A DNA stretch of 64,000 nucleotides from Pelomonas sp. Root1237 (lineage in GTDB: Bacteria; Pseudomonadota; Gammaproteobacteria; Burkholderiales; Burkholderiaceae_C). The notes under the pieces are model-generated. The model was not told the DNA's origin and searched no databases. It saw only the letters and a list, made by a program, of their open reading frames with translations. Shown here piece after piece: positions 12,200 through 42,381 of this stretch. The first letter of the stretch is position 1. Every line of letters starts with the position of its first letter. Where the stretch lies: positions 285,803 to 349,802 of the forward strand of contig NZ_LMDK01000016.1 in NCBI RefSeq assembly GCF_001425055.1, written 5' to 3'. The position numbers and the translations under genes were made by a program.

Positions 12200-12240
12200 G
12201 TCATTTGCTCCGCCGCGTGTAGCGGCGCTTGAAATTTGCG

Positions 12241-12358
12241 GGCCGAGCGCCGGGCCGCTCCCAAGCCGGCCCGCGTTGGGCGACGTACCTGCCGGTCGAA
12301 CCGGCAGGTATCGCCGTCCCCGCGGGGGACCGGCCAACGTACTCGTTGGACGAGGGGC
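12241..12358 (-). repeat. Dispersed hairpin repeat, copy A
   Basis: Read on the minus strand, this intergenic element shares a skeleton with copies at 18837, 21977 and 26239. The skeleton is CCCCTCG, a variable hairpin, GGTCCCCCG(C/A)GGGGACGGCGAT, a second hairpin, then GTCGCC/ATCGCC and GCGGGCCGGCT plus GGGAGCGGCCC. In this copy the second hairpin has arms ACCTGCCGG (12287-12295) and CCGGCAGGT (12301-12309). The arm bases differ entirely from the other copies while pairing is kept. It lies between ccoN and ccoO, within an operon. Confidence 0.85.
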
Positions 12359-12369
12359 TGCATGTCAGT

Positions 12370-13818
12370 TCAGGCGTGAGCCAGCGCGGGGACCGGGATG
12401 CGCACGGACTGCGAATTGCCGGCCTGCACGGTCTTGATGACGTTCCAGCTCATGATCAGCATGCCGCCGAGGTAGAGCAGGCCACCGCTGAGACGGATCA
12501 CGTAGAAGGGCCAGGTCGCCTTGACGCTCTCGACGAAGGTGTAGACCAGCGTGCCGTCGGGGTTGACCGCGCGCCACATCAGGCCCTGCATGACGCCGGC
12601 GATCCACATCGCGGCGATGTAGAGCACGATGCCCAGCGTCGCGATCCAGAAGTGCAACTCGATGGCACGCTTGGAGTACATCTGCGTGCGGCCGAACATG
12701 CGCGGGATCAGGTGGTAGAGCGAGCCCATCGAGATGAGGCCCACCCAGCCCAGCGCCCCGCTGTGCACGTGGCCCACCGTCCAATCGGTGTAGTGCGACA
12801 GCGCGTTGACGGTCTTGATGGACATCATCGGCCCCTCGAAGGTCGACATGCCGTAGAACGACAGCGCGACGATGAGGAACTTCAGGATGGGGTCGTCACG
12901 CAGCTTGTGCCAGGCACCCGACAACGTCATGACGCCGTTGATCATGCCGCCCCAGCTCGGCGCCAGCAGCACCAGGCTGAAGATCATGCCGACGCTCTGC
13001 GCCCAGTCCGGCAGCGCCGTGTAGTGCAGGTGGTGGGGGCCCGCCCACATATAAGTGAAGATCAGCGCCCAGAAGTGGACGATGGACAGGCGGTAGCTGT
13101 AGACGGGGCGCTCGGCCTGCTTGGGGATGTAGTAATACATCATCCCGAGGAAGCCCGCGGTCAGGAAGAAGCCCACCGCGTTATGGCCGTACCACCACTG
13201 CACCATGGCGTCCTGCACACCGGCGTAGGCCGAATAGCTTTTCCAGAAGCTGACCGGGATCACCGCGCCGTTGACGAGGTGCAGCAGGGCCACAGCGAGG
13301 ATGAAGGCACCGAAGAACCAGTTGGCCACGTAGATGTGACGGATCTTGCGGCGCCCCACGGTGCCGAAGAACACGATGGCGTAGGACACCCAGGCAATGG
13401 TGATCAGCACGCCGATGGGCCATTCCAGCTCGGCATATTCCTTGCCGCGTGTGAAGCCCAGCGGCAGCGTGATGGCCGCAGCCACGATGACCAGCTGCCA
13501 GCACCAGAAGTGAAACCACGCCAGGCCCGGCGCGAACAGGCGGGTCTGGCCGGTGCGCTGCACGACGTGGTAGCTGGTCGCCATCAGTGCGCAGCCACCG
13601 AACGCGAAGATGACCGCGTTGGTATGCAGGGGCCGCAGCCGCCCGTAGCTCAACCAGGGGATGCCTGCGCCGAGATCGGGCCAGGCCAGTTGCGCCGCAA
13701 TGATGACGCCCACCAGCATGCCCACCACGCCCCACAGAACGGCGGCCAGCGCAAATGCGCGTACCGGTCCGTCTTCGTATACCGCCCCAGTGGTGGCCAG
13801 CGCCTTTTCGTTCGCCAT
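12370..13818 (-). CDS. ccoN: cbb3 oxidase catalytic subunit I
   Basis: A 482-residue polytopic heme-copper oxidase subunit. Histidine ligands are visible in order: H65 in LHTNAVIF (low-spin heme b), the CuB histidine in [10 protein letters not shown], the paired histidines of GPHHLHYT, and the late [10 protein letters not shown] for the hemes. Together with CcoO/P it reduces oxygen to water with high affinity in the inner membrane. The ATG at 13818 is preceded by AAGGAG. The promoter region (13819-13864 plus the end of ccoS) carries an FNR-type box, fitting induction under low oxygen. Confidence 0.97.
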
Positions 13819-13864
13819 CGCGACTCCTTCAGTCTGATGCAAACGATTCTTCGCGCGGGGGCTC

Positions 13865-14014
13865 CTAGACGCCTTGATCCTCGTCAAGCAGGATGCGTTC
13901 AGCCTCGTGTTCGAAGCCGTCCAGTTGCCCGGAGTGCACAGCCCAGCCGAACACCGCCACGATGAGCAGCACCAGCACGACCGAGAAGGGGATGAGGAGA
14001 TACAGGATGTCCAT
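13865..14014 (-). CDS. ccoS: cbb3 oxidase maturation protein CcoS
   Basis: A 49-residue protein starting [20 protein letters not shown], with one N-terminal helix, then [20 protein letters not shown]. This is the FixS/CcoS pattern (short helix, aromatic FxWAxxxGQ(F/L)(D/E)). CcoS is needed for cofactor insertion into cbb3 oxidase. Its ATG overlaps the ccoI stop (TGATG). Its last codons, LLDEDQG, contain the FNR-type box that probably drives ccoN, so the coding and regulatory functions overlap. Confidence 0.92.
13874..13887. promoter_or_regulatory. FNR-type box upstream of ccoN, inside ccoS
   Basis: TTGATCCTCGTCAA matches TTGATNNNNATCAA at 9 of 10 defined positions. Its centre is about 63 bp before the ccoN ATG, a normal distance for an FNR-activated promoter. 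It lies entirely within the 3' codons of ccoS. Confidence 0.82.
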
Positions 14015-16221
14015 CAGCGCGCCAATCTCTGGGCATTGAGCACGACGAACAGCGAACTCGCTGCCATGCCCAGGCCCGCCGCCAGCGGCGGCAGCCAGCC
14101 GCTCAGCGCCAGCGGCACGCAGGCCAGGTTGTAGAGCGCCGCCCAGGCGAGGTTCTGACGCAGCACGCGGCGCGTCCTGTGCGCCAGCGCGAGCGCCTGC
14201 GGGATGGCCATCAGCTGGTTGGACACCAGCAGCGCATCTGCGGCACCGCGCGCCAGCATGGCGCCCTGCCCCATGGCGATGCGCACGTCCGCCGCGGCCA
14301 GCACCGGCGCGTCGTTGATGCCGTCGCCGACCATCAGCACGCGCTCGCCGCGCGCCTGCCAGTCACGCAGAGCAGCAAGCTTGGACTCGGGCGTGGCGCC
14401 CGCGCGCCAGTGGGCAATGTCCAGCAACGCCGCCATGCGCGCGACCGCCGCCGGCTGGTCGCCCGATAGCAGGCGCACGCGCCTGCCCTGGGCGCGCAAG
14501 GCCTTGATCGTTGCCGCTGCATCGGCGCGTGGTGCCTCGGCAAGGTCCAGCCACAGCACGCAGTCGCCGCAGCCCACGGGGCCAAACGCCAGCCGCGCAG
14601 CCGGATCGGGCCGCGCGCTGACCCAGGCCGGCGCACCCAGGCGCCAGACCCGGCCGGTCGCGTCGCGCGCCTCCACGCCGCGGCCGGCGACTTCGCGCAC
14701 GTCCGCCCAGCTGCCGGCACTTCCGTCGGCCAGCGCCTGCGCCACCGGGTGGCGCGACAGCCCGGCCAGGCTGCGGGCGACGTTCAGCAGCGCGTCGGCA
14801 TCGGCGCCCTGGGCCCAGTGGCGACGCAGCTGCAGCCGGTCCTCGCTGAGCGTGCCGGTCTTGTCGAAGACGACGGTGTCGATGGTGCACAGCCGTTCCA
14901 GCGCCGCCAGGTCCGTCAGCAGCAACCCGCGCCGAGCAAGCGCGCCGCTGGCCGCGAGCCAGGCCGCAGGCGCGGCCAGGGTCAGCGCGCAGGGGCAGGT
15001 GACGATCAGCACGGCCACGGCCACTGCGATGGCGCGTGAAGGATCCAGCCACCACCAGCCGACGCCCGCCAGCAGCGCCAGCAGCAGCACGACCGCCGTG
15101 AAGCCCGCGGCGACGCGGTCCAACACGCCGTTGACAAAAGGCCGCTGGCTCTGGGCCTGCTGCATCAATCGCACGATGCCCTGCGCCGTCGTGTCTGCAC
15201 CCACGCGCAGCACGCTGACGATGAGCGAGCCGTCGAGGTTGATGCTGCCCGCCACGACCGCATCGCCCACCGTCTTGGCGACCGGCGCGGATTCGCCCGT
15301 CAGCAGGGCCTCGTCGGCCCAGCCCTGGCCGGACAGCACACGGCCGTCGGCCGCGAAGGCCTCGCCGGCCGCGACGCGGATGCGATCACCCACGCGCAGC
15401 GCCTCGGGCGCGACGCGTTCACTGCTGCCGTCATCACGCAGCCGCTCGGCCGCCGTTGGCATCGCACCGGCGACCGCTTCCAGCGCATCCGCCGCACGAT
15501 GCCGCGCCCCCAGTTCGAACCAGCGCGCCAGCAGCAGCAGCGCGACGAACATCGTCAGCGAATCGAAGTAGACCTCGTGGCCCAAAGGCCCGCCGGGGTC
15601 GAACAAGGCGCCGGTGCTGGCCACGAAGGTGACGGCGATGCCCAACGCCACCGGCACATCCATGCCCAGCCGGCCTGCCCTCAGTTGCCGCAAGGCGCCA
15701 ACCATGAAGGGGGCGGCCGAAAAGGCCATGACAGGCAGCGTCAGCACCCAGCTGGCCCAGCGCAGCAGGCGGTCCAGGTCGGCGCTGAGCTCACCCGGGG
15801 CGGCAACGTAGGCCGGCGTCGCCATCATCATGACCTGCATCATCAGGAAGGCGGCGACAAAGAGCCGCCACAGGGCCTGGCGCCTTTCCTGCCTGCGCAG
15901 CTCGCGCGCCGGCGCTGCGACGTCGGGCGTGGCCCGGTAGCCCGCCACCTGCAGCGCGGCCAGCACGTCGGCGAGCGTGAGCTGTGAAGGCAACCACTGC
16001 AAGGCCAGCCGGGCCGACGCCGGATTGACACTGGCACCGCGCACGCCTGGCAGCGTCAGCAGCGCCGCTTCGATCAACCCCGAGCAGGCCGCGCAATGCA
16101 TGCCCGCCACCTGGAATTGCGACAGCGCCACACCGCCCGGGCCATCGGGCCAGGTCGTGAAGGGGGCGAGGAGGCGGGCGTCGGCATCAGCCGCACACAA
16201 GCCGGGAGGGGGTGCACTCAC
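14014..16221 (-). CDS. ccoI: Copper-translocating P1B-ATPase for cbb3 assembly
   Basis: A 735-residue P-type ATPase of the CcoI/FixI class. An N-terminal heavy-metal domain has GMHCAACSG (C43, C46). The membrane metal site is CPC (409-411). The cytoplasmic domains have TGES (308-311), phosphorylation site DKTGT (453-457), an SRHP motif and GDGINDAP. It exports Cu(I) to the periplasm for the CuB centre of cbb3 oxidase. The best start is a GTG at 16221, with weak ribosome-site support. It is directly coupled to ccoS, the usual ccoI-ccoS arrangement, upstream of ccoN. Confidence 0.94.
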   Translation of the reverse strand: MSAPPPGLCAADADARLLAPFTTWPDGPGGVALSQFQVAGMHCAACSGLIEAALLTLPGVRGASVNPASARLALQWLPSQLTLADVLAALQVAGYRATPDVAAPARELRRQERRQALWRLFVAAFLMMQVMMMATPAYVAAPGELSADLDRLLRWASWVLTLPVMAFSAAPFMVGALRQLRAGRLGMDVPVALGIAVTFVASTGALFDPGGPLGHEVYFDSLTMFVALLLLARWFELGARHRAADALEAVAGAMPTAAERLRDDGSSERVAPEALRVGDRIRVAAGEAFAADGRVLSGQGWADEALLTGESAPVAKTVGDAVVAGSINLDGSLIVSVLRVGADTTAQGIVRLMQQAQSQRPFVNGVLDRVAAGFTAVVLLLALLAGVGWWWLDPSRAIAVAVAVLIVTCPCALTLAAPAAWLAASGALARRGLLLTDLAALERLCTIDTVVFDKTGTLSEDRLQLRRHWAQGADADALLNVARSLAGLSRHPVAQALADGSAGSWADVREVAGRGVEARDATGRVWRLGAPAWVSARPDPAARLAFGPVGCGDCVLWLDLAEAPRADAAATIKALRAQGRRVRLLSGDQPAAVARMAALLDIAHWRAGATPESKLAALRDWQARGERVLMVGDGINDAPVLAAADVRIAMGQGAMLARGAADALLVSNQLMAIPQALALAHRTRRVLRQNLAWAALYNLACVPLALSGWLPPLAAGLGMAASSLFVVLNAQRLAR

Positions 16222-16255
16222 GCCGCCAATCTAGATGGCCCGCCCCGCCGCCCCC

Positions 16256-16269
16256 ATGACCTGGGTCAA
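16256..16269. promoter_or_regulatory. Degenerate FNR-like site between ccoI and cupin gene
   Basis: ATGACCTGGGTCAA matches the FNR consensus at 7 of 10 defined positions. It lies 35 bp before the ccoI start and 62 bp before the cupin gene start. Position suits a role for either gene, but the match is weak and it should be treated as a candidate only. Confidence 0.35.
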
Positions 16270-16330
16270 GCTTTTGCGGGAACACATATTGCGTGTGCTC
16301 CACCGCCTGCAGCACTTCAGGAGGTCACTC

Positions 16331-16783
16331 ATGTCGGATCTGTCGATACCCGTGGACGCCGCCAACGACGCGTCCGCCACACAGTTCTCCCATGTCAAGC
16401 CCGGGGACACGCCCTGGCGCCCCGACGGGCTGAGAGATTTCTTCCTCTACCGCGACCTGGGCGTGGCCGAGGCCACGGCGGGCAAGGTCATCGCGCACCT
16501 TGTGAAGGCGAACATGGCCCCTGAAAAGGGCACGGGATGGCACCGCCATGAGGCGGAGTTCCAGATCGTGCTGATGACCAAGGGCTGGGCCAAGTTCATG
16601 TACGGCGACCAGGTGACGCTCGTCGAGGCCGGCGACTGCGTGCACCAGCGCCCCGGCATCGTGCATTACCTGTTCGACTACTCGCCGGACATGGAGTACC
16701 TGGAGATCGTCTCGCCGGCGGACTTCAAGACGGTGGACGCGCCGGCGCCTTGTGAAGTGCCGGCGCCTTCGACCTGGCCCTAG
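16331..16783 (+). CDS. Cupin-domain protein
   Basis: A 150-residue small cupin. The first cupin motif is GWHRHEAEFQIVLMTKGWAKF, with metal ligand candidates H71, H73 and E77. The second motif follows at GDCVHQRPGIVHYLFDYS, with a further histidine. Start ATG 16331 is fixed by a strong AGGAGG site. Substrate and catalytic role cannot be inferred; many such single-domain cupins bind metal and small ligands or act as sensors. It ends convergently with the GST gene, the two stop codons sharing the palindrome CTAG at 16780-16783. A weak FNR-like site lies upstream. Confidence 0.85.
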   Translation: MSDLSIPVDAANDASATQFSHVKPGDTPWRPDGLRDFFLYRDLGVAEATAGKVIAHLVKANMAPEKGTGWHRHEAEFQIVLMTKGWAKFMYGDQVTLVEAGDCVHQRPGIVHYLFDYSPDMEYLEIVSPADFKTVDAPAPCEVPAPSTWP

Positions 16784-17517
16784 AAATCCATGTCGAGCTG
16801 CTCGATCTCGTCCGGCTCCAGCCGGGCCGCGGCCGTCCACTCCTTGAGCTCCGGCATGGCGCTGATGGCCTTGCAATAGGCCATGCAGGCGGGATTCAAC
16901 GGCACGTCATAGGTCATGAAGCGCGTGACGACCGGCGCAAAGAAGGCGTCGGCCGCACCGCGCTTGGCACCAAACAGATAGGGGCCGCCGTAGCGCGCCA
17001 GGCAGTCGGTCCAGATCTCGGTGATGCGCTCAATGTCGGGCTTGGCCCCGGCCCAGATCTTGTGGCGCGGAAAGTGGCCCTTGAGGTTCATGGGCAGCGA
17101 CGCGCGCAAATTGGCAAAGCCGGAGTTCATCTCGCCGCAGATGGCCCGCGCATGGGCCCGCGCGACGCGGTCCGCGGGCCACAGGCCGGCTTTGGGGAAA
17201 AGCTCGTTCAGATACTCGGCAATGGCCATGTTGTTCCAGACCGTCACGCCGTCATGCCGCAGGCAGGGCACGCGGATGGAGGGCGCCAGCAGCAGCAGTT
17301 CCTTGCGCGCATCCTCATCGTCGGGCGAGACCATGATCTCATCGAAGGCCAGGCCGGCGAAGCGCGTCAGCAGCCAGCCGCGCAGCGACCACGAGGAGTA
17401 GTTCTTGCTGCTCAGCGTCAGCGTGGCCGCGGGTGTCGCGGCCTTGGATTTTCGCGCCGGTGCTGGAGCGGTTTTCACCGCCTTGGCGGCGGGGCGGGTC
17501 GGCGTGGCAACAGGCAT
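16780..17517 (-). CDS. Glutathione S-transferase family protein
   Basis: A 245-residue protein whose first ~32 residues are Ala/Lys/Pro-rich, followed by a thioredoxin-like GST N-domain (LTLSSKNYSSWSLRGWLLT, then RVPCLRHDGVTVWNNMAIAEYL) and an all-helical C-domain. The SSxNYSSWSLR start is typical of a proteobacterial GST subgroup with an N-terminal serine pair as the catalytic candidate. It would conjugate glutathione or act as a thiol reductase; substrate unknown. ATG 17517 has a good AAGGAG site. The low-complexity N-terminal extension is odd for a cytosolic GST and could be a tether or an over-long start. Confidence 0.87.
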   Translation of the reverse strand: MPVATPTRPAAKAVKTAPAPARKSKAATPAATLTLSSKNYSSWSLRGWLLTRFAGLAFDEIMVSPDDEDARKELLLLAPSIRVPCLRHDGVTVWNNMAIAEYLNELFPKAGLWPADRVARAHARAICGEMNSGFANLRASLPMNLKGHFPRHKIWAGAKPDIERITEIWTDCLARYGGPYLFGAKRGAADAFFAPVVTRFMTYDVPLNPACMAYCKAISAMPELKEWTAAARLEPDEIEQLDMDF

Positions 17518-17620
17518 GGCGTCTCCTTCTCGGTCTGGGCACCCCATCGACGCAAGGCCCATGCCATGCTGGCGCGCTCCTTGCGTCGCTCCTGGCATCA
17601 CCGGCCTTGCAGGAGCAACC

Positions 17621-18835
17621 ATGTACCCCGCCTACCAGGCCCATACCGATCTGCTGTGGCCGCTGCGCATGGCCACGCGCATGTCGATTCCCTTCCTGCA
17701 GCAGCCCGGCATTGCTGACGCCAGCTGGTTGCCAGCGCGCCAGTGGTCGGCGGCAGGCAAGGTCTTCGAGCTGGCTCAGATCACCCACACCCGCCCGCCC
17801 TGGCGCATTGGTGAGATCGTCAGCGGCGACGAGCGCTGGCCTGTCACCGAAGAAGCCACGCTGACCACGCCCTTTGCGACGCTGCTGCGCTTTCGCAAGG
17901 AAGGCGCGCCTGAGCAACCCAAAGTGATGGTGGTGGCGCCGATGTCGGGCCACTTCGCCACGCTGCTGCGCGAGACGGTGCGCACGCTACTGCAGGACCA
18001 TGATGTCTACATCACCGACTGGCACAACGTGCGCGACGTGCCGCTGGTGGCCGGCCGCTTCGGGCTGGACGAGTACACCGGCCACTTGATCGACTTCCTG
18101 GCCGCCATCGGCCCGCAGGCCCACGTGGTGGCCGTCTGCCAGCCCTGTGTCAGCGCACTGGCGGCCGTGGCGCTGATGGCCGAGGACGACCACCCTGCCA
18201 CGCCAGCCAGCCTGACGCTGATGGCCGGCCCCATCGATTGCCGCGTCAGCCCCACCGCCGTCAACGAACTTGCCACCAGCAAGCCCATCTCGTGGTTCAA
18301 GAAGAACCTGATCAGCCATGTGCCCTGGCAGCACGCGGGCGCGGGGCGGCGCGTCTACCCGGGCTTCGTGCAGCTGTCGGCCTTCATGAGCATGAACAAG
18401 GACAGGCACACCAACGCCTTCAAGGACTACTACAAGCACCTCGTCGCCGATGAGTTCGACAAGGCCGAGGTCACGCGCGTGTTCTACGAGGAATACCTGG
18501 CCGTGGCCGACCTCGCGGCCGACTTCTACCTGGAAACAGTGGAGCGCGTCTTCCAGACCTACGACCTGCCACGCGGCGAGATGTTCTTCAGGGGCCGGCG
18601 TGTGAACCCGGCGGCCATCCGCCGCACCGCTTTGCTGACCGTGGAGGGTGAGCGCGACGACATCTGCGCTGTCGGCCAGACGCTGGCCGCCCAGGACCTC
18701 GCCAGCAGCCTGCGCGCCTATATGCGCACCCACTACATCCAGCCCAACGTCGGCCACTACGGCGTGTTCAGCGGGCGGCGCTGGCAGCACCAGGTCTATC
18801 CGCTGGTGCGGCACGTCATTCAGGTGTCGCAATAG
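17621..18835 (+). CDS. phaZ: Intracellular poly(3-hydroxybutyrate) depolymerase
   Basis: A 404-residue protein of the PhaZ1 (intracellular, amorphous-PHB) family, starting MYPAYQAHTDLLWPLR. The nucleophile is a cysteine, C176, in AVCQPCVSAL, where Ralstonia PhaZ1 has its catalytic Cys in a lipase-like box. The conserved HYGVFSGRRW close to the C-terminus supplies the histidine. It degrades native PHB granules for carbon mobilisation, implying the organism stores PHB. Start ATG 17621 follows an AGGAG site. It is monocistronic, divergent from the GST gene with only 103 bp between starts, and followed by repeat copy B. Confidence 0.94.
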   Translation: MYPAYQAHTDLLWPLRMATRMSIPFLQQPGIADASWLPARQWSAAGKVFELAQITHTRPPWRIGEIVSGDERWPVTEEATLTTPFATLLRFRKEGAPEQPKVMVVAPMSGHFATLLRETVRTLLQDHDVYITDWHNVRDVPLVAGRFGLDEYTGHLIDFLAAIGPQAHVVAVCQPCVSALAAVALMAEDDHPATPASLTLMAGPIDCRVSPTAVNELATSKPISWFKKNLISHVPWQHAGAGRRVYPGFVQLSAFMSMNKDRHTNAFKDYYKHLVADEFDKAEVTRVFYEEYLAVADLAADFYLETVERVFQTYDLPRGEMFFRGRRVNPAAIRRTALLTVEGERDDICAVGQTLAAQDLASSLRAYMRTHYIQPNVGHYGVFSGRRWQHQVYPLVRHVIQVSQ

Positions 18836-18836
18836 G

Positions 18837-18974
18837 CGCCCCTCGCCCAGTTGCGCGTCGCTGAACGCGAGCGCATCTGGTCGGTCCCCCGAGGGGACGG
18901 CGATGCTCTCGGCATCGAGCCGAGAGCACATCGCCAACGCGGGCCGGCTCGGGAGCGGCCCAGCGCTCGGCCCG
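18837..18974 (+). repeat. Dispersed hairpin repeat, copy B
   Basis: Plus-strand copy of the intergenic element described at 12241-12358. Hairpin 2 has arms GCTCTCGGC (18905-18913) and GCCGAGAGC (18919-18927) around loop ATCGA, embedded in GGCGAT...ACATCGCC. Hairpin 1 (about 18846-18882) pairs CCAG/CTGG and TGCGC/GCGCA across a TGAAC loop. The right end, GGGCCGGCTCGGGAGCGGCCC, can form a third stem. It fills the gap between phaZ and the sodB terminator. Confidence 0.85.
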
Positions 18975-18990
18975 AAAGGCCGAACCAACG

Positions 18991-19019
18991 AAAAAGGCCG
19001 GCATCGGCCGGCCTTTGTT
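18991..19019. terminator. Bidirectional terminator between phaZ and sodB
   Basis: Perfect 10-bp arms AAAGGCCGGC (18993-19002) and GCCGGCCTTT (19007-19016) surround ATCG, with A residues on the left and TTTGTT on the right. The convergent phaZ and sodB genes end on either side, so it can serve both. Confidence 0.85.
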
Positions 19020-19032
19020 CGGGGCGAATCGC

Positions 19033-19620
19033 TCAGGCGAAGTTGGCTTCAGCGAACTGCCAGTTCACGAGATTGCTCAGGAAGGTCTCGACGAACTTGG
19101 GGCGCAGGTTGCGGTAGTCGATGTAGTAGGCGTGTTCCCACACGTCGACGGTCAGCAGCGCCTTGTCAGCGCCGGTCAGCGGCGTGCCGGCGGCGCCGGT
19201 GTTGACGATGTCGACAGAGCCGTCGGCCTTCTTCACCAGCCACGTCCAGCCCGAGCCGAAGTTGCCAACGGCGCTCTTGACGAAGGCTTCCTTGAAGGCG
19301 GCATAGCTGCCCCACTTGGCGTTGATGGCGTCGGCCAGCGCGCTGCTGGGCTCGCCGCCACCTTGCGGCTTCATGCAGTTCCAGAAGAAGGTGTGGTTCC
19401 AGATCTGGGCGGCGTTGTTGTAGATCGGACCCGGGTTCGGTGCCTTCTTGATGATCTCTTCCAGCGTCAGGGCTTCGTACTCGGTGCCCTTTTGCAGGTT
19501 GTTGAGGTTCACGACGTAAGCGTTGTGGTGCTTGCCGTGGTGGAACTCCAGCGTTTCCTTGCTGTAGTGCGGGGCCAGCGAGTCGATCGGGTAAGGCAGC
19601 GGGGGCAGCGTGTGTTCCAT
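19033..19620 (-). CDS. sodB: Superoxide dismutase (Fe)
   Basis: A 195-residue Fe/Mn-type superoxide dismutase. Metal ligands are H27 (EFHHGKHH), a histidine in IWNHTFFWNCM, and the aspartate and histidine of DVWEHAYYIDY. The block NNAAQIWNHTFFW followed by a Gly-rich MKPQGGG, and GAAGTPL later, favour the iron form. It removes superoxide in the cytosol, fitting next to a high-oxygen-affinity respiratory chain. ATG 19620 follows a GAGGA site. Its own terminator lies just downstream; xseA lies 57 bp upstream in the same direction. Confidence 0.95.
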   Translation of the reverse strand: MEHTLPPLPYPIDSLAPHYSKETLEFHHGKHHNAYVVNLNNLQKGTEYEALTLEEIIKKAPNPGPIYNNAAQIWNHTFFWNCMKPQGGGEPSSALADAINAKWGSYAAFKEAFVKSAVGNFGSGWTWLVKKADGSVDIVNTGAAGTPLTGADKALLTVDVWEHAYYIDYRNLRPKFVETFLSNLVNWQFAEANFA

Positions 19621-19677
19621 CGTGGAGTCCTCAGGTGTTGGGGGGAAGGGAAACGCAAAGATTGTAGGGAGAGCCAA

Positions 19678-20979
19678 TCACCCCTGCGGCGAAGGCTGTA
19701 CCCCCAGAACGCGCAAGTCGAGGCTGCCGTCGGCCAGCACCGCGCGCACCTCGGCGCCGGGCAGCAAGGCATGCACGGACGTCACCGCGCCGCCGGCGCC
19801 GTCGTCCAGCCAGGCGTAGCCGCGCGCCAGCACATGCTGCGGGTCCAGGGCCTGCAGCCGGGCCTGCAGCGCGTCCAGCCGGGTGTGCTGGCGCGCCAGG
19901 ATCTCGTGGTGCGCGCGTTCATGGCGCTGCTCCAGGTGGGTCAGCCGCTGGCCTTGCAACTCGACGCGCCGGCGTGGCGCCGCGCCGGCACGCTGGGCCA
20001 GCAGATCCAGCAGGCGCCGTTGGCGGGCCAGCACGTCACTGGGGCGGGACAGGCGCAGCGCGAGTCGATCCAGGCGCTGGGCGAGGGTCTGCAGGCGGTG
20101 GTCGATGCGCAGGGTCAGGCTGCGCTCCAGCGCACCGAGGTGCTGCAGCAGGCTGGCGCGCGACGGCGCCGCCAGCTCGGCGGCGGCCGTGGGCGTGGGC
20201 GCGCGCAGGTCGGCGGCCAGGTCGCACAGTGTCACGTCGGTCTCGTGGCCGACGCCGCAGACGATGGGCAGGGCCGAATTGGCCACCGCGCGGACGACGC
20301 GTTCGTCATTGAAGGCCCACAGGTCCTCCAGCGAGCCGCCGCCGCGCACCAGCAGCAGCACGTCGACCTCGGCCCGCTCGTTGGCGCGCCTCAGCGCTTC
20401 GACCAGCGCCGGCGGCGCTTCGACGCCCTGCACCGGACTCGGGTAGACCAGCACCTCGACCTGGGGCGCTCGCCGCGCCAGCGCCGTCAGCACATCGTGC
20501 AGGGCTGCACCGGCCGTCGACGTGATGACGCCGATGCGGCGCGGGTGGGTGGGCAGCGCGCGCTTGGTGTCGGCATCGAACAGGCCCTCGGCCGTCAGCC
20601 GCGCCCGCAGCGCGAGGAACTGCTCGTACAGCGTGCCGGCACCGGCACGGCGCATGGCCTCGACGACGAACTGCAGCTCGCCGCGCGGCTCGTAGACAGC
20701 GACGCGGCCGCGCACCTCGACCAGCACGCCTTCGGCCGGCGCAAAGTCCAGCATGGCGGCGGCGCGGCGGAACATCGCGCAGCGCAGGCTGGCGGCCTGG
20801 CCGTCGGCGTCCTTCAGTCCGAAATAGCAGTGGCCGCTGGCGGCGCGCGTGAAGCCAGTGATCTCGCCGCCAACGGCGACGACCGAGAAGCGCTCAGCCA
20901 GGCTCTGGCTCACCGCCTCCAGCAAACCAGCCACGCCCCAGACACGACGATTTGAAGCGGCTTCGCGGGGCTCAATCAC
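19678..20979 (-). CDS. xseA: Exodeoxyribonuclease VII large subunit
   Basis: A protein of about 433 residues that, with XseB, degrades single-stranded DNA from both ends. The OB-fold N-domain begins RVWGVAGLLEAVSQSLAERF and contains ASGHCYFGLKD. The catalytic core shows RIGVITSTAGAALHDVL, LLLVRGGGSLEDLWAFNDE and PIVCGVGHETDVTLCD. A long helical region follows, then the LARGYAWL C-terminal motif. The start is uncertain: the GTG at 20979 gives the normal short N-terminus, while a TTG at 21045 would add 22 residues of unusual composition. No xseB is in the window, as is common in this order. Confidence 0.92.
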   Translation of the reverse strand: MIEPREAASNRRVWGVAGLLEAVSQSLAERFSVVAVGGEITGFTRAASGHCYFGLKDADGQAASLRCAMFRRAAAMLDFAPAEGVLVEVRGRVAVYEPRGELQFVVEAMRRAGAGTLYEQFLALRARLTAEGLFDADTKRALPTHPRRIGVITSTAGAALHDVLTALARRAPQVEVLVYPSPVQGVEAPPALVEALRRANERAEVDVLLLVRGGGSLEDLWAFNDERVVRAVANSALPIVCGVGHETDVTLCDLAADLRAPTPTAAAELAAPSRASLLQHLGALERSLTLRIDHRLQTLAQRLDRLALRLSRPSDVLARQRRLLDLLAQRAGAAPRRRVELQGQRLTHLEQRHERAHHEILARQHTRLDALQARLQALDPQHVLARGYAWLDDGAGGAVTSVHALLPGAEVRAVLADGSLDLRVLGVQPSPQG

Positions 20980-21350
20980 GCGCAAACCCAATGCCGGCGC
21001 GGGCCGGGAAGTCCACAGCCGCGCCAATACTGGGCTGGCGGGCAATTTCGGCTCATTTCGCCCGTCACAGAGCTGTCATGAGCACATAAGGCCTTGTTTT
21101 TCAATTCGAATTCCACTGCTCAAACTTGAGGCAACTTGTCCAAGGCCTTGATTTGACGGCCTCTGCAGGCCAGCGCCGCTGCGTTGCCCACAAAGTTATC
21201 CACAGTAACGGTGGATTGTGAGAACGCTTTCGCAGTGGCGGAGATCGGCCGAGGCGCGCAAGGCTGGGGCCATAATCCCGCGCACTCATCCGGCCGTCAG
21301 CGGCCGTTTTTGTGACCGGCCTGCTGGCCTTTTTATCGACGGGGACGCCC
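20980..21350. other. Non-coding gap with a DnaA box and AT-rich patch
   Basis: This 371-bp stretch between the divergent xseA and exbB genes holds no convincing gene. It contains a perfect consensus DnaA box TTATCCACA at 21196-21204, a palindrome AATTCGAATT at 21103-21112 and a local AT-rich segment (about 21095-21120), unusual for this GC-rich window. Promoters for both genes must lie here. A TTG at 21045 and a GTG at 21312 are possible alternative starts for the two flanking genes. Confidence 0.5.
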
Positions 21351-21968
21351 TTGTTTTCGATCATACAAGCCGCCGGTTGGCCGATCTGGCCCTTGCTCCT
21401 GTGCTCCGTGGTGGCCCTGGCCCTGATCATCGAAAGGCTGTCCAGCCTGCGCGCCAGCCGCATCCTGCCGCCGCGGCTGCTGGAGGACGTCATGAACGTC
21501 AGCGCCCAGCAACTGCCCGCGCCCGACATGGTCGACCGCCTGGCCGAAAACTCGCTGCTCGGCGAGGTGCTGGCTTCCGGCCTGCGCGCCGTCACGGCCG
21601 AGCCGCAGATGCCCGAGGGCAAGCTGCGGCTGGTGTTCGAATTTGCCGGCCGACGCGCCGTGCACCAGCTCGAGCGCTACATGAACACCCTGGGCACCAT
21701 CGCCACGGCCGCGCCGCTGCTGGGGCTGATGGGCACCGTGGTCGGCATGATCGAGATCTTTGGCAGCCAGACACCCGGCGGCGGGAACCCCGCGCAGCTG
21801 GCGCACGGCATCTCCATCGCCCTCTACAACACGGCCTTCGGCCTGATGATTGCCATCCCCTCGCTGATGTTCTACCGCTACTTCCGCGGCCGCATCGAGG
21901 AATATGTACTGGAGCTTGAAGCCGCTGCAGACCGTCTGCTGGGCCAACTGCGCCGCTACACGGCCTGA
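21351..21968 (+). CDS. exbB: ExbB/TolQ-family proton channel protein
   Basis: A 205-residue MotA/TolQ/ExbB protein with one N-terminal helix (IWPLLLCSVVALALIIERL) and two later helices around TLGTIATAAPLLGLMGTVVG and ALYNTAFGLMIAIPSLMFY. It forms the proton channel with ExbD. The TTG at 21351 (product MFSIIQAAGWPIWP) is favoured because it restores the usual N-terminus and has GGGGAC upstream; a GTG at 21312 is the alternative. It is followed by exbD, but a repeat copy lies between them. A second, separate ExbB/ExbD set occurs at 27.9-29.6 kb. This copy, placed before lpxK, is the envelope-linked one conserved in betaproteobacteria. Confidence 0.88.
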   Translation: MFSIIQAAGWPIWPLLLCSVVALALIIERLSSLRASRILPPRLLEDVMNVSAQQLPAPDMVDRLAENSLLGEVLASGLRAVTAEPQMPEGKLRLVFEFAGRRAVHQLERYMNTLGTIATAAPLLGLMGTVVGMIEIFGSQTPGGGNPAQLAHGISIALYNTAFGLMIAIPSLMFYRYFRGRIEEYVLELEAAADRLLGQLRRYTA

Positions 21969-21976
21969 AATGGACT

Positions 21977-22101
21977 GCCCCTCGTCTGGTCTCGCCCCGC
22001 TGAACGCGGGCGCGCCCAACCGGTCCCCCGAGGGGACGGCGATGCTTGCGGCATTGAGCCGCAAGCACATCGCCTGCGGGCCGGCTAGGGGCGGCCCGGC
22101 G
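21977..22101 (+). repeat. Dispersed hairpin repeat, copy C
   Basis: Same skeleton as copies A, B and D: GCCCCTCG, hairpin 1 (CGCCCCGC / GCGGGCG around TGAAC), GGTCCCCCGAGGGGACGGCGAT, then hairpin 2. Hairpin 2 has arms GCTTGCGGC (22044-22052) and GCCGCAAGC (22058-22066) around ATTGA, followed by ACATCGCC and GCGGGCCGGCT. It separates exbB from exbD in what should be one operon. Confidence 0.85.
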
Positions 22102-22147
22102 CCGGTCCGCGGCGTGAGGCGCTGCACACAACGGATGAACTGACATC

Positions 22148-22564
22148 ATGAGATTCCGCTCCCCACACCGCGAGCCGCCGGAGATCAACCTCATCCCGTT
22201 CATCGACGTGCTGTTGGTGATCCTGATCTTCCTGATGCTGTCAACGACGTACTCCAAGTTCACCGAGCTGCAGATCACCCTGCCCTCGGCCGATGCGGAG
22301 AAGTTGAAGGACAGGCCGCAGGAGGTCATCGTCGGCATCGCCGCCGATGGCCGCTTCGTCATCAACCGCCAGCCGGTGGAAGGCCGCTCGGTGGACATCC
22401 TGATCGCCGCGCTGCGCCAGGCCTCCGGCGGCAACGCCGACGCGTCGCTGATCATCTCGGCCGACGCCGCCACGCCTCACCAGGCCGTCATCAACGTGAT
22501 GGACGCCGCGCGCCGTGTCGGCCTGACGCGTGTCACCTTCGCTGCCCAAACCGACGCTCGCTGA
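22148..22564 (+). CDS. exbD: ExbD/TolR-family protein
   Basis: A 138-residue protein with a short cytosolic N-terminus, one membrane helix (INLIPFIDVLLVILIFLMLS, with the functional aspartate in FIDV) and a periplasmic domain ending [15 protein letters not shown]. ExbD/TolR proteins couple proton flow through ExbB/TolQ to periplasmic work. The EINLIPFIDVLLVLLIFLMLSTTY pattern is the lpxK-linked ExbD type. Its last 35 bp overlap the start of lpxK, indicating translational coupling. Confidence 0.9.
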   Translation: MRFRSPHREPPEINLIPFIDVLLVILIFLMLSTTYSKFTELQITLPSADAEKLKDRPQEVIVGIAADGRFVINRQPVEGRSVDILIAALRQASGGNADASLIISADAATPHQAVINVMDAARRVGLTRVTFAAQTDAR

Positions 22565-23573
22565 CCGCCTCCAGCAAGAGTGGCTGACCGGCGGGCCGCT
22601 GTCGGTCGCCCTGCTGCCGCTGAGCTGGCTCTACCGCACGCTGCTGGCGCTGCGCCGGTTGGCCTATGCCATTGGTTTCAAGCGCGTCGAAACGCTGCCT
22701 GTGCCCGTCATCGTCGTCGGCAACTGGATCGTCGGCGGTGCCGGCAAGACGCCGACGACGCTGGCCCTGCTGGCGATGTTGCGCACGCGCGGCCTGCGCG
22801 CTGGCGTCGTCTCGCGTGGCTACGGGCGCGAGAGTGACGGCGTGCGTCTCGTCACTGGTGTATCGACGGCCCGTGAAGTCGGGGATGAGCCCCTGCTCAT
22901 CCATCTGCGCAGCGGCGTGCCTGTGGCGGTTGGCCGCGACCGCGTCGCCGCGGCGCGCGCCCTGTTGGCTGCCGAGCCCGGGTTGCAGCTGCTGGTCAGC
23001 GACGACGGCCTGCAGCATTGGCGGCTGCCGCGCAACCTGAGCTTGCTGGTCTTCGATGAGCGCGGCCTGGGCAATGGCCGCCTGCTGCCCGCGGGCCCCT
23101 TGCGCCAGCCGCCTGCGACGCTGGCGGCTGACGAGCTCGTCGTCTACAACGCGCCGCAGCCGAGCACCGCCCTGCCCGGCTTCGTCGCCGGGCGCCGCCT
23201 GGCTGGCGCGGTGACGCTGGCCGACTGGTGGGCCGGCAAACCGGCGCAGATGGACACGCTGCTGGCCTTGCGCGAGCGGCCGGGGCTGCTTGCCGTTGCC
23301 GGCGTGGCAAGGCCGCAGCGCTTCTTCGACATGCTGGCAGCGCTTGGATTGCGCTTTGACAGCCTGGCCCTGCCCGACCACGCCGACTTCGGGAGCCTGC
23401 CTTGGCCCCCCGACGCGGCCGCCGTCCTGCTGACCGAGAAAGACGCCGTGAAGCTGTCGCCCGAGCGCGTCGGCGCCCTGCCCGTCTGGGTCGTGGCGCT
23501 AGACTTCTCGCCCGGTGCCGGCTTCGAGGCCGCGCTGGACACCCAACTGCAAAAACTCTTCGCTCTCGCCTGA
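22530..23573 (+). CDS. lpxK: Tetraacyldisaccharide 4'-kinase (lipid A)
   Basis: A 347-residue inner-membrane-associated kinase that adds the 4'-phosphate of lipid A. The P-loop is [13 protein letters not shown] (64-76), followed by [22 protein letters not shown] and [11 protein letters not shown], all LpxK signatures. An N-terminal hydrophobic helix ([17 protein letters not shown]) anchors it. Start GTG 22530 overlaps exbD by 35 bp; its stop overlaps the next ATG (TGATG). The order exbB-exbD-lpxK-trm112-kdsB is the conserved LPS-precursor block. Confidence 0.94.
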
Positions 23574-23788
23574 TGGATCAACGCCTCATCGAAATGCTGG
23601 TCTGCCCGCTGTGCAAGGGGCCGCTGACGCTGCTGCGTGAAGGTGCCGGACTGGAATTGCCGGCCCTGGCCTGCCGCGCCGACCGCCTGGCCTTCCCCGT
23701 TCGCGACGGCATCCCGCTGATGCTGGAGAGCGAGGCCAAGGCCTGGGACCCGGACGCCCCCGCGCCACCGGTCGTACTGGCGCCATGA
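23573..23788 (+). CDS. Trm112/YcaR-family small protein
   Basis: A 71-residue protein starting [20 protein letters not shown], with the CPLC pair, a third cysteine in [20 protein letters not shown] and an acidic end. This is the YcaR/Trm112-like family found between lpxK and kdsB in most proteobacteria; the fourth zinc cysteine is missing, as in many bacterial members. Function is not established in bacteria. Both ends overlap neighbours (TGATG with lpxK, ATGA with kdsB). Confidence 0.88.
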
Positions 23789-24618
23789 GCGCCGCGCCGG
23801 GCCGCCCCAAGCAAGCTCGCTCCCGCTTGGCGGGAGTGAGCCCGGACATGGGATGCCCTGTGGGCATCCCATGCCTGGCGAACGCCTGGCCGCGCTGTCG
23901 GCCAGGCAAGGCCGCAGCGACGCGGCTGCCGAACAAACCGCTGGCCGACATTGCCGGCCTGCCGATGATCGTGCGCGTGGCGCGCCGCGCGGCCGAGTCC
24001 GGTGCCAGCCAGATCGTCGTGGCGACCGATGCGCCCGAAGTCGCGGCCGCCTGCGCCACCCACGGTGTGCGCGCGCTGATGACGCGAGCCGACCATCCGT
24101 CCGGTAGTGACCGTCTCGCCGAAGCCGTCGAGCAGCTCGGGCTGGCTGACGACGCCGTTGTCGTCAACGTGCAAGGTGACGAACCGCTGATCGCACCGGC
24201 CATGATCGACGCCTGCGCACTGATGCTGGCCGCCCAGGCCGACTGCGTGATGGCCACCGTCGCGCATGCGCTGACCGATCCTTCTGAGTTCGCGAACCCG
24301 AATGTCGTCAAGCTGGTCACCGACAAGGCCGGCCGTGCGCTGTATTTCTCACGCGCGCCCATCGCCTGGTGGCGCGACGGCGGCGGCCAGCCCAACGGCG
24401 CGCTGCGCCATGTCGGCCTGTATGCCTACCGCGCCGGCTTCCTGCGTCGCTTCCCCACGCTGGCCGTCAGCCCCCTGGAGCAGATCGAGTCGCTGGAGCA
24501 GTTGCGCGTGCTCTGGCACGGCGAGCGCATCGCCGTGCATGTGAGCGACGAGCGGCCCGGACCAGGCGTGGACACACCCGAGGATCTGGAGCGCGTGAGG
24601 CGTCTCATCGAGGGTTGA
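23785..24618 (+). CDS. kdsB: CMP-Kdo synthetase with replaced N-terminus
   Basis: From residue 45 on this is a normal KdsB, which activates Kdo for [60 protein letters not shown] and [11 protein letters not shown]. The first ~44 residues ([15 protein letters not shown]... to RCRPGKAAA) are not KdsB-like. The hallmark strand VVIIPARxAS is absent; aligned positions read RPGKAA, so the catalytic arginine of PAR is replaced by lysine. The protein is 277 residues against about 250 usually. The foreign part is encoded by a three-hairpin repeat cluster (23815-23907). The frame stays open throughout, so it may be made, but activity is doubtful unless another start or copy exists. Confidence 0.85.
23815..23907 (+). 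repeat. Three-hairpin repeat cluster inside kdsB
   Basis: Three successive hairpins are visible. The first has arms GCTCGCTCCCG (23815-23825) and CGGGAGTGAGC (23831-23841). The second has CATGGGATGCCC (23847-23858) and GGGCATCCCATG (23862-23873). The third has GCCTGGCCG (23884-23892) and CGGCCAGGC (23899-23907). The second is bordered by GGA...CC so that it reads GGACA...TGCC, the same frame as two hairpins in repeat copy D at 26.3-26.4 kb. It occupies codons 11-41 of the kdsB frame. Confidence 0.85.
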
Positions 24619-24666
24619 CGCGGGTCTGCGGCGTCAGGCTCAGATAAGGCCGCATGCGATACTTGA

Positions 24667-25371
<705 letters not shown>

Positions 25372-25391
25372 GCGTTCTCACCCCAAGAACA

Positions 25392-25422
25392 AGCCGCGGC
25401 GCGCATGCCCCGCGGCTTTTTT
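25392..25422 (+). terminator. Rho-independent terminator of adk
   Basis: Arms AGCCGCGG (25392-25399) and CCGCGGCT (25410-25417) are followed directly by a T run ending at 25422. It lies 20 bp after the adk stop. Confidence 0.9.
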
Positions 25423-25433
25423 GTCGTCCACAA

Positions 25434-25449
25434 TTGACGTTTACGTCAA
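25434..25449. promoter_or_regulatory. Palindromic operator upstream of SDR gene
   Basis: TTGACGTTTACGTCAA has perfect 7-bp arms (TTGACGT / ACGTCAA) around TT. It sits 29 bp before the dehydrogenase start, between the adk terminator and the ribosome site. It resembles, from memory, the MerR-family LiuR operators of branched-chain amino acid and fatty acid degradation genes, which would fit the product. Confidence 0.65.
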
Positions 25450-25478
25450 CCGTTCCCCATACCCAGGAGATCCTCATC

Positions 25479-26237
25479 ATGGAAATTGCAGGCAAGGTGT
25501 TCATCGTCACCGGCGGCGCCTCGGGCCTCGGTGAAGGCACGGCCCGCATGCTGGCGGCCCACGGTGCCAAGGTCGTCATCGCCGATCTGCAGGCCGAACG
25601 TGGCCAGGCCGTGGCCGCCGAGCTCGGTGGCCTCTTCGTCAAATGCGACGTCAGCCAGGAGGCTGATGGTCAAGCTGCCGTCGCTGCAGCCACGGGCCTG
25701 GGCAAGCTGGTCGGCCTCGTCAACTGCGCCGGCATCGCGCCGGCCATCAAGACAGTCGGCAAGGATGGCGCCCACCCGCTGGCGGCCTTCAGCAAGACCA
25801 TCACGGTCAACCTGATCGGCAGCTTCAACATGATCCGCCTGGCCGCCGAGGCCATGGCCAGGAACGAGCCGGAACCGACTGGAGAGCGCGGCGTGCTGAT
25901 CTCGACGGCGTCGGTCGCGGCCTATGACGGCCAGATCGGCCAGGCGGCCTATTCGGCGTCCAAGGGCGGTGTGGTCGGCATGACGCTGCCCATCGCCCGC
26001 GACCTGGCTCGCAACGGCATCCGCAACATGACCATCGCCCCAGGTATTTTCGGCACGCCGATGCTGTTCGGCATGCCCCAGGAGGTGCAGGACGCGCTGG
26101 CCGCGAGCGTCCCCTTCCCGAGCCGCCTGGGCAAGCCCGAGGACTACGCCAAGCTCGTGCACCAGATCGTCACCAACGACATGCTGAACGGCGAGGTCAT
26201 CCGCCTGGACGGCGCGATCCGCCTGGCACCGAAATAA
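25479..26237 (+). CDS. SDR dehydrogenase, 3-hydroxyacyl-CoA type II-like
   Basis: A 252-residue short-chain dehydrogenase. The cofactor motif is TGGASGLG (11-18), with NCAG at 82-85 and catalytic Ser near 143-145, Y158 and K162 (YSASK). The start [20 protein letters not shown] and the segment [19 protein letters not shown] resemble 3-hydroxy-2-methylbutyryl/3-hydroxyacyl-CoA dehydrogenases of the HSD10 type. These act on short-chain hydroxyacyl-CoAs in isoleucine or fatty acid breakdown. ATG 25479 follows AGGAGA. It is a single-gene unit with a palindromic operator. FabG-like activity cannot be excluded from sequence alone. Confidence 0.87.
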
Positions 26238-26238
26238 C

Positions 26239-26475
26239 GCCCCTCGTCCGGTCTTGCAGACCGCGCTGCGGCTATGCCGCAACTCTTCGGCAGGCACAAG
26301 ACGCCCACTGGGCGTCTTGTGTCCGGCCTCAGCCCCCGAGGGGACGGCGATGCTTGCGGCATCGAGCCGCAAGCACATCGCCAAGCGGGCCGGCTCGGTG
26401 AACTGGAGTCGGACACAAGCAGTCCCTGCGGACTGCTTGTGCCTACGGAAGGCCATGGGCCTCTGGCCCATGGCA
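26239..26475 (+). repeat. Dispersed hairpin repeat, copy D, with extra hairpins
   Basis: The core matches copies A-C: CCCCTCG at 26241, CCCCGAGGGGACGGCGAT, hairpin 2 with arms GCTTGCGGC (26353-26361) and GCCGCAAGC (26367-26375), ACATCGCC, GCGGGCCGGCT. Here the hairpin-1 slot is filled by several stems: GGTCT/AGACC, TGCGGC-TAT-GCCGCA, and CACAAGACGCCC-ACT-GGGCGTCTTGTG (26296-26322). After the core come CACAAGCAGTCC-CTGC-GGACTGCTTGTG (26415-26442) and GCCATGGGCC-TCT-GGCCCATGGC (26453-26475). No gene is present in the whole 26238-26543 interval. Confidence 0.85.
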
Positions 26476-26492
26476 GGCCGGGCAGCGGAATG

Positions 26493-42113: not shown

Positions 42114-42117
42114 CAAA

Positions 42118-42381
42118 GGGCCTGTTGAAGTCAAGGAAATCGGTGCGAGAGGGCTTGCGCGGGTGCAGGGCTAGGCGTGCGACGCCGCCTGGGCTCATGC
42201 CCAGGCCAGGCGCACAACAACGCCATGAGCCCGTGCAGGCCCTCTCCCGAAGGGTTGTCACTCAAAAGCCCGCGCGCGGCGTTGCGAAGCCTCGCTGGGA
42301 TCAACCCCAGCTTCGACTTCGCGCCTTGCTCGCGGGCTTTTGAGTGGCAACGCATCCGACTTCCTTGGCTTCAACAGGCCC
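42118..42381. repeat. 264-bp three-armed inverted-repeat element
   Basis: Outer arms of 26 bp (42118-42143 and 42356-42381, 24 of 26 complementary, starting GGGCCTGTTGAAG) enclose two large hairpins. Hairpin 1 pairs 42147-42163 with 42230-42246 (GAGAGGGC...), with an inner stem CCTGGGC-TCAT-GCCCAGG at 42189-42206. Hairpin 2 pairs 42255-42274 with 42331-42350 (TTGTCACTCAAAAGCCCGCG, 19 of 20). No gene is encoded. The element fills the tadA-ldcA gap almost exactly, ending on the tadA stop codon. No clear target duplication is seen. Confidence 0.9.

What the first reader, a model, noticed from the sequence alone, without database searches (positions are those of the whole stretch)
12241..26475. 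Dispersed intergenic hairpin element with compensatory stem changes
Four copies (12241-12358 on the minus strand, 18837-18974, 21977-22101, 26239-26399) share a fixed skeleton. They differ in a 9-bp stem: ACCTGCCGG/CCGGCAGGT, GCTCTCGGC/GCCGAGAGC, GCTTGCGGC/GCCGCAAGC (twice). Every copy keeps perfect pairing and a 5-nt loop of TTCGA, ATCGA or ATTGA, inside GGCGAT...ATCGCC. Outer strings CCCCTCG and CGAGGGG can also pair. Changing both strands of a stem together is the sign of selection on structure, not sequence. Two copies lie inside operons (ccoN/ccoO, exbB/exbD). It may be a structured RNA, a protein-binding repeat or a mobile repeat family. I know of no named family matching it.
Basis: partly seen in the sequence, partly recalled or inferred. 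Interest (0 to 1): 0.8.

Follow-up and report, generated by a model that had tools for sequence, protein, structure and literature searches.

The report
Hairpin repeat anchored after stop codons
This is a family of short, non-coding DNA repeats that fold into hairpins, has spread to about 150 places in one bacterial genome and to its relatives, and sits mostly directly behind the stop codon of a gene and pointing the same way, which hints at an effect on that gene's messenger RNA or at an unusual way of choosing where to land.

Summary
The four copies belong to a repeat family with 147 copies in this Roseateles/Pelomonas genome. It is present in all 20 genus genomes searched and in some other genera. 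Hairpin modules are strongly supported by covariation: 20 of 40 pairs change on both sides in 76 copies. The element looks non-coding, has no Rfam match near a gathering score, and copy 3 has no match in the plasmid and phage collections.

This holds for 117 of 142 own copies, 25 of 28 in 1.2 Mb of a relative, 81 of 96 in other fetched loci and 26 of 30 in other genera. All three stop triplets are used. Orthologous spacers are often empty, flipped or of another type, so it is mobile. Best filing: a new family of small mobile palindromic repeats (REP/ERIC/YPAL kind) with an unusually strict positional rule. Cis action on the mRNA is inferred. The mobilising enzyme is unknown.

The parts
12237..12357 (-). 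Copy 1, short type, between ccoN (COX1) and ccoO (FixO); 5' end 12 nt after the ccoN stop; hairpin B at 12279-12315 (plus coordinates)
18839..18974 (+). Copy 2, medium type, convergent spacer; 5' end 3 nt after the stop of a PHB depolymerase-like gene; hairpin P 18884-18898, hairpin B 18899-18935, hairpin C 18941-18973
21978..22110 (+). Copy 3, medium type, between exbB and exbD; 5' end 9 nt after the exbB stop; hairpin P 22023-22037, hairpin B 22038-22074
26240..26479 (+). Copy 4, long type: no hairpin A, extra hairpin domain (about 26250-26332), hairpin B 26346-26382, and a different 3' module (about 26398-26479); 5' end 2 nt after the stop of a short-chain dehydrogenase gene
12370..12372 (-). 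Stop codon of ccoN that precedes copy 1
   Evidence: ORF end
18833..18835 (+). Stop codon that precedes copy 2
   Evidence: ORF end
21966..21968 (+). Stop codon of exbB that precedes copy 3; orthologous sites without the element keep a stop here, followed by a 4-28 nt spacer
26235..26237 (+). Stop codon that precedes copy 4
   Evidence: ORF end

Best explanation
It is a family of small, non-coding, mobile repeats of Roseateles/Pelomonas and some related genera, about 105 to 275 nt long, built from GC-rich hairpin modules. SHOWN: 147 copies in this genome; hairpins kept by double changes; modules gained and lost; presence/absence, flips and type changes between species at orthologous spacers; 5' end anchored 0-12 nt behind a stop codon in sense orientation in more than four of five copies, whatever the stop triplet. 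INFERRED: copies are moved in trans by an enzyme not found here; copies that land directly behind a stop codon in sense are the ones retained because, as the first part of the 3'UTR or of an intercistronic region, their hairpins act in cis on the upstream message (on the terminating ribosome or on 3' decay), as reported for stop-proximal REPs and for ERIC. It is not a trans-acting RNA gene.
For: Copy number 147 and presence in all 20 genus genomes. Covariation: 157 double-change cells against 45.9 in shuffles and 14-32 when slid; 93.9% of cells paired against 33-42% when slid. Hairpin B: 100 of 142 stems with all nine standard pairs against a mean of 36 with shuffled arms. Position: 117 of 142, 25 of 28, 81 of 96, 26 of 30; the samples overlap in part. 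Orientation in codirectional spacers 77 sense to 15 antisense and 70 to 7. In convergent spacers, where both sides are stops, the 5' end is the nearer one in 37 of 42, with 1 tie and 4 the other way; 35 of 40 without two copies whose called frame runs into the element. Holding each copy's own spacer fixed, 114 of 132 observed against 43.3 expected, and 27 of 40 against 2.9 in spacers with 60 nt or more of free length. Mobility: exbB-exbD spacer occupied in 6 of 20 genomes, 4-28 nt long in 13, unreadable in 1; of 31 orthologous spacers in one relative, 10 same orientation, 5 reversed, 16 without it. In the five reversed cases the 5' end is 0-11 nt behind the stop of the other neighbour.
Against: No expression, stability or ribosome data, so the cis effect is untested. 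21 of 31 orthologous sites in the relative lack a same-orientation copy, so a strong benefit per site is unlikely and targeted insertion remains open. 25 of 142 own copies do not follow the rule, among them 15 antisense ones in codirectional spacers. No enzyme, clear target duplication or terminal inverted repeat was found. Gene calls come from a home-made caller. Copies are related, so cell counts exceed events. The palindromic arms could be kept alike by replication-based correction.
Confidence: 0.55

Rival explanations
1. Translation-aware targeting: the insertion process itself finds the place behind the stop codon (for example through ribosome-free nascent RNA, an R-loop displaced strand, or insertion at RNA level), and no function is needed.
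For: Stop triplets at the sites (TGA 93, TAG 13, TAA 11 of 117) match their use in 1002 genes of a relative (chi-square p 0.65), so no one DNA triplet is read. One orientation dominates. Orthologous spacers are re-used with flipped copies (5 of 31). A second, unrelated palindromic family also lies 9-23 nt from a stop in 12 of 12 copies.
Against: I know of no enzyme that does this; 0-12 nt is very sharp for an R-loop; no young insertions were seen; 25 of 142 copies do not follow the rule.
Confidence: 0.22
2. Passive tolerance: random insertion, with selection removing copies from genes, promoters and ribosome-binding sites, leaves only the few bases behind stop codons.
For: Spacers are short in these genomes (median about 50 nt codirectional); copies are rare in divergent spacers (4 of 145 script hits).
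Against: Conditional null 43.3 expected against 114 observed, 2.9 against 27 in long spacers; orientation 77:15 and 70:7; 5' end nearer in 37 of 42 convergent spacers.
Confidence: 0.08
3. The covariation is a product of palindrome correction (template switching within hairpins at replication), not of selection on a folded molecule.
For: Hairpin modules are gained, lost and swapped at orthologous sites (7 of 10 shared sites differ in type, read from the sequences), so replication slippage at the palindromes is likely.
Against: Loops vary while stems stay paired (columns 55-56 against 49-52 and 57-60); the same fold is kept in four other genera examined, including double changes in GGCGAT/ATCGCC. 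Neither point excludes it.
Confidence: 0.15
4. Trans-acting structured RNA gene or riboswitch present in many copies.
For: Conserved fold; Rfam would not list an undescribed class.
Against: 147 dispersed copies, module loss, species-specific presence; no Rfam match near a gathering score.
Confidence: 0.03

Closest known systems
E. coli REP elements within 15 nt of a stop codon (primary paper not read; seen as reference 17 discussed in passages of PMC12306157; its authors' names are recalled as Liang et al. 2015)
   Same: Short palindromes directly behind stop codons, in the position reported to stall ribosomes and lower expression.
   Different: In E. coli 260 of 496 (older set) or 446 of 4072 (newer set) lie within 15 nt; here 82-89% are anchored, in one orientation, and the element is 105-275 nt with several hairpins and conserved sequence.
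ERIC/IRU of enterobacteria (PMC2229807, section 10 and passages)
   Same: About 127 bp, hairpin RNA, co-transcribed; an orientation-dependent effect on the upstream message involving ribosomes is described.
   Different: That review lists terminal inverted repeats, target duplication and TA termini for ERIC; no sequence relation tested here; stop-codon anchoring not described in the passages read.
YPAL/RU-2 of Yersinia (PMC2229807, section 11)
   Same: About 168 bp, internal rather than terminal inverted repeats, not A+T-rich, empty and filled sites, linked to expression of upstream genes.
   Different: YPAL makes target duplications of 3-26 bp and has an open reading frame; neither was found here.
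GTAG- and CGTC-tagged REPs (PMC3733652, abstract and passages)
   Same: Dispersed intergenic palindromes; CGTC families have 8-9 bp stems, 4-5 nt loops and no dedicated transposase.
   Different: 20-40 bp single hairpins with a GTAG or CGTC tag; CGTC stems almost always begin with A-T pairs. Not so here.
Integron attC sites (recalled)
   Same: Palindromic, structure conserved more than sequence, located behind the stop codon of a cassette gene in fixed orientation.
   Different: No attC core box in the consensus, no arrays, dispersed over the chromosome.

Membership tests
GTAG-tagged REP mobilised by RAYT | RAYT (Y1_Tnp) gene flanked by the repeat | tested here: not met
   Y1_Tnp genes occur in 20 of 20 genus genomes, 40 matches listed. 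12 of these loci with about 1.5 kb on either side show only chance 2-mismatch hits to the 12-nt core; 4 stretches of 5-6 kb around the three own genes (one of them again) and one gene of a relative show none. The other matches were not looked at.
GTAG-tagged REP mobilised by RAYT | 20-40 bp hairpin with an unpaired GTAG tag | tested here: not met
   Consensus of 76 medium copies has no GTAG and is about 140 nt with four hairpins.
CGTC-tagged REP | CGTC tag followed by an 8-9 bp stem beginning with A-T pairs and a CCA-like tail | tested here: not met
   The only CGTC (complement of GACG) in the consensus adjoins CCCC, not A-T pairs.
Classical MITE (ERIC, RUP) | Terminal inverted repeats | tested here: not met
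   Ends CCCCTCG and CGGCCCG are not inverted copies.
Classical MITE (ERIC, RUP) | Target duplication | tested here: inconclusive
   None visible at the exbB-exbD empty sites or, but flanks are only 80-98% identical, so exact junctions are not settled.
YPAL/RU-2 | Internal inverted repeats, placed downstream of genes | tested here: met
YPAL/RU-2 | Sequence relation to the Yersinia element | not tested
   The Yersinia sequence was not at hand.
Stop-proximal REP (works like) | Hairpin element within 15 nt of the stop codon | tested here: met
   117 of 142 within 12 nt; repeated.
Stop-proximal REP (works like) | Ribosome stalling and mRNA cleavage | not testable with these tools
   Needs experiment.
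Any Rfam family | Score above gathering threshold | tested here: not met
   0 in the window; for copies 2 and 4 the E-value-mode hits lie far below gathering scores.
Integron attC | GTTRRRY core box (motif recalled) | tested here: not met
   No GTT in the consensus; read by eye, no attC search was run.

The most novel reading that the evidence does not exclude
A mobile repeat whose insertion reads translation: copies are placed directly behind in-frame stop codons, in the sense orientation and regardless of which stop triplet is present, so that the information used is the end of a translated frame rather than a DNA motif. More than one palindromic family in these genomes may share this route.
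Probability: 0.15. Interest if true: 0.9.

Novelty: new variant of a known kind. Interest (0 to 1): 0.62.

Why it matters
Stop-proximal palindromes are known in E. coli, but there only about half or a tenth of the REPs, depending on the set, lie within 15 nt of a stop (passages of PMC12306157). A family with 82-89% of copies anchored behind stop codons in one orientation, repeated across genera and with orthologous empty, filled and flipped sites, makes an old question testable: are such repeats retained there for an effect on the message, or does insertion follow translation? By my estimate (147 copies; gene density) some 2-3% of the gene ends of this genome carry one, including respiratory and transport operons.

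Tried and rejected
Coding: reading frames 0 and 1 through the element are about equally open, so a peptide is unlikely. Outer pairing CCCCTCG/CGAGGGG: 93.2% of cells pair, but no more than in shuffles (93.3%), with no double changes, and 19 and 14 of 76 copies break the two informative pairs. Strand of folding: A.C mismatches exceed G.T on the gene strand (82 to 25; 24 to 9 over distinct inner stems) and the opposite strand folds more stably in 109 of 142 copies, but unpaired columns show the same G-to-A excess (56 to 14), so I draw no strand conclusion. In hairpin B of relatives the excess was 24 to 15, not significant. RAYT link: not supported. The extra hairpin domain as a separate repeat: the loose pattern was too noisy to decide. 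Family-wide pattern count: chance hits hide low counts (one genome has 18 pattern hits and no model match), so only model searches are used for other genera. Plasmid and phage collections: no match of copy 3.

Rows dropped: one search lists 145 script hits, against 147 model copies; I used 142, leaving out two chance hits and one mis-anchored long copy. One search used 132 of the 142 (10 with a negative distance left out). could place a 3' end in 129 of 142. One search counts 30 script hits, of which one is a false reverse reading; one of the 30 loci (L382) gave no hit; two scored as misses read by eye as TGA plus 7 nt, but I keep 26 of 30. share some sequence of one relative, and holds orthologous copies of several species. 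Copies of the second family were not deduplicated between the calls.

Full report
WHAT IS THERE. The four copies are present as described. The core occurs 146 times in the 6.43-Mb genome by pattern with up to 3 mismatches, against 1 for the reversed control, and 147 times by a covariance model built from 31 copies. The model matches all 20 genus genomes searched (own included), 4 of 16 other genera of the family and 0 of 24 other families of the order (counts there are capped at 69 and the filters were strict). In five other-genus genomes searched again it found 46, 25, 46, 0 and 1 copies.

ANATOMY. From 5' to 3': CCCCTCG; hairpin A; hairpin P, GTCCCC-CGA-GGGGAC; hairpin B, GGCGAT-9 bp-5 nt-9 bp-AC-ATCGCC; a short linker; hairpin C, GGGCCG...CGGCCC, with GGCGCTCGGCCCG behind it. 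By the length before the core there are short, medium and long copies (34, 76 and 32 of 142); long ones carry an extra hairpin domain of about 80 nt, with or without hairpin A. In 76 medium copies 20 of 40 pairs have changes on both sides, 157 cells change on both sides (45.9 in shuffles, 14-32 when slid), and 93.9% of cells pair (33-42% when slid). For hairpin B, 100 of 142 stems have all nine standard pairs and 35 have eight; shuffled arms give 36 perfect stems on average and 49 at most in 200 shuffles.

POSITION. With my own gene calls the 5' end CCCCTCG lies 0-12 nt behind a stop codon of the same strand in 117 of 142 copies. This repeats in a contiguous 1.2-Mb sample of a relative (25 of 28), in deduplicated loci of other genomes, mostly of the genus and partly overlapping that sample (81 of 96), and in four other genera (26 of 30). 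In codirectional spacers the element is sense in 77 and antisense in 15, and 70 to 7; 6 of the antisense copies lie 4-8 nt from the start codon of the neighbour. In convergent spacers, where both neighbours are stop codons, the 5' end is nearer to its stop than the 3' end to the other in 37 of 42, with one tie and 4 the other way (35 of 40 without two copies with a negative distance). With each copy's own spacer held fixed, and uniform placement in either orientation that spares 15 nt before start codons in spacers of 30 nt or more, 43.3 of 132 would be anchored; 114 are. In spacers with 60 nt or more of free length the figures are 2.9 and 27 of 40. The stop triplets at the sites are TGA 93, TAG 13, TAA 11; against the use in 1002 called genes of the relative p is 0.65. 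TGAAATGRAG before CCCC is frequent: TGA at exactly 7 nt occurs 27 times, TAA or TAG there never (p 0.001), so a few bases to the left may belong to the element.

MOBILITY AND TURNOVER. At exbB-exbD 6 of 20 genus genomes carry the element, 13 have a 4-28 nt spacer and 1 was not readable. Of 31 orthologous spacers found in the relative, 10 hold the element in the same orientation, 5 in reverse and 16 lack it. In the reverse cases the 5' end lies 10, 11, 0, 2 and 5 nt behind the stop of the other neighbour. At 117 pattern hits in some 5,500 spacers (my estimate), chance re-use of 21 spacers would give fewer than one. Three of the 16 hold another palindromic repeat instead. At 7 of the 10 shared sites the type differs, in 6 of them by the extra domain (types read from the sequences). 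Copy 3 has no match in plasmid or phage collections.

HOW IT PROBABLY WORKS. Apparently non-coding, by position transcribed with the upstream gene, hairpins within reach of the terminating ribosome: this is the arrangement for which E. coli REPs within 15 nt of a stop were reported to stall ribosomes (PMC12306157, passages), and an orientation-dependent, ribosome-linked destabilisation by ERIC is described (PMC2229807, section 10). I take retention for a cis effect as most likely, but targeted insertion is a serious rival, because the preferred site is not one DNA triplet, and because a second palindromic family shows the same location in 12 of 12 copies.

NOVELTY. No Rfam match near a gathering score. 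Searches for Burkholderiales, Pelomonas, Roseateles, Rubrivivax or Leptothrix repeats and for stop-codon-proximal repeats listed no paper whose title or abstract start describes it; subscription papers and preprints are not covered. Of the papers I saw passages of PMC12306157, PMC3733652, PMC7509114 and PMC2267715, and passages plus sections 10 and 11 of PMC2229807; the rest only as listings.

LIMITS. Home-made gene calls; related copies; flanks in relatives only about 80-98% identical, so exact junctions are not settled; no expression data.

Noticed in passing
G002 (L298-L357) and orthologues of own C16:190051, C16:192482, C16:394390, C19:222216: A second palindromic repeat (GCAACCACAGAGGCACAGAG...CTCTGTGGTTGC, about 75 nt) sits 9-23 nt from a stop codon in 12 of 12 copies (7 and 5), all in codirectional spacers, sometimes in the very spacer that holds the first element in another species.
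   Followed up: partly
A2 columns 8/44 and 13/39 (hairpin A): Two mismatches inside the stem are mostly C opposite T or T opposite C, with the sides exchanged between copies (39 and 28 of 76 at 8/44, C.C or T.T only 3; 41 and 13 of 76 at 13/39).
   Followed up: partly
A2 alignment, all columns: G-to-A changes exceed C-to-T on the gene strand, more so in unpaired columns (56 to 14) than in paired ones (66 to 38); probably in part a subfamily effect.
   Followed up: partly
window 26398-26479; L094 near 10751-10831: 11 matches in the own stretches carry a different 3' module with further hairpins (GAACTGGAGTCGGACACAAG...), so the longest form is about 275 nt.
   Followed up: partly
L367 (own C19:328174) and counterparts in genus genomes: A conserved RAYT-like Y1_Tnp gene, with the same downstream neighbour sequence in six of the 12 loci fetched, without the element in about 1.5 kb on either side.
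   Followed up: partly
window 42117-42382: Inverted repeats including CACTCAAAAGCCCGCG; a similar sequence is seen in a spacer of a relative (L262), so probably another repeat family.
   Followed up: no
own C20:167437 and three others: In four copies the called reading frame runs 26 nt into the element, where medium copies have a TGA inside hairpin A, so some copies may supply the stop codon.
   Followed up: no
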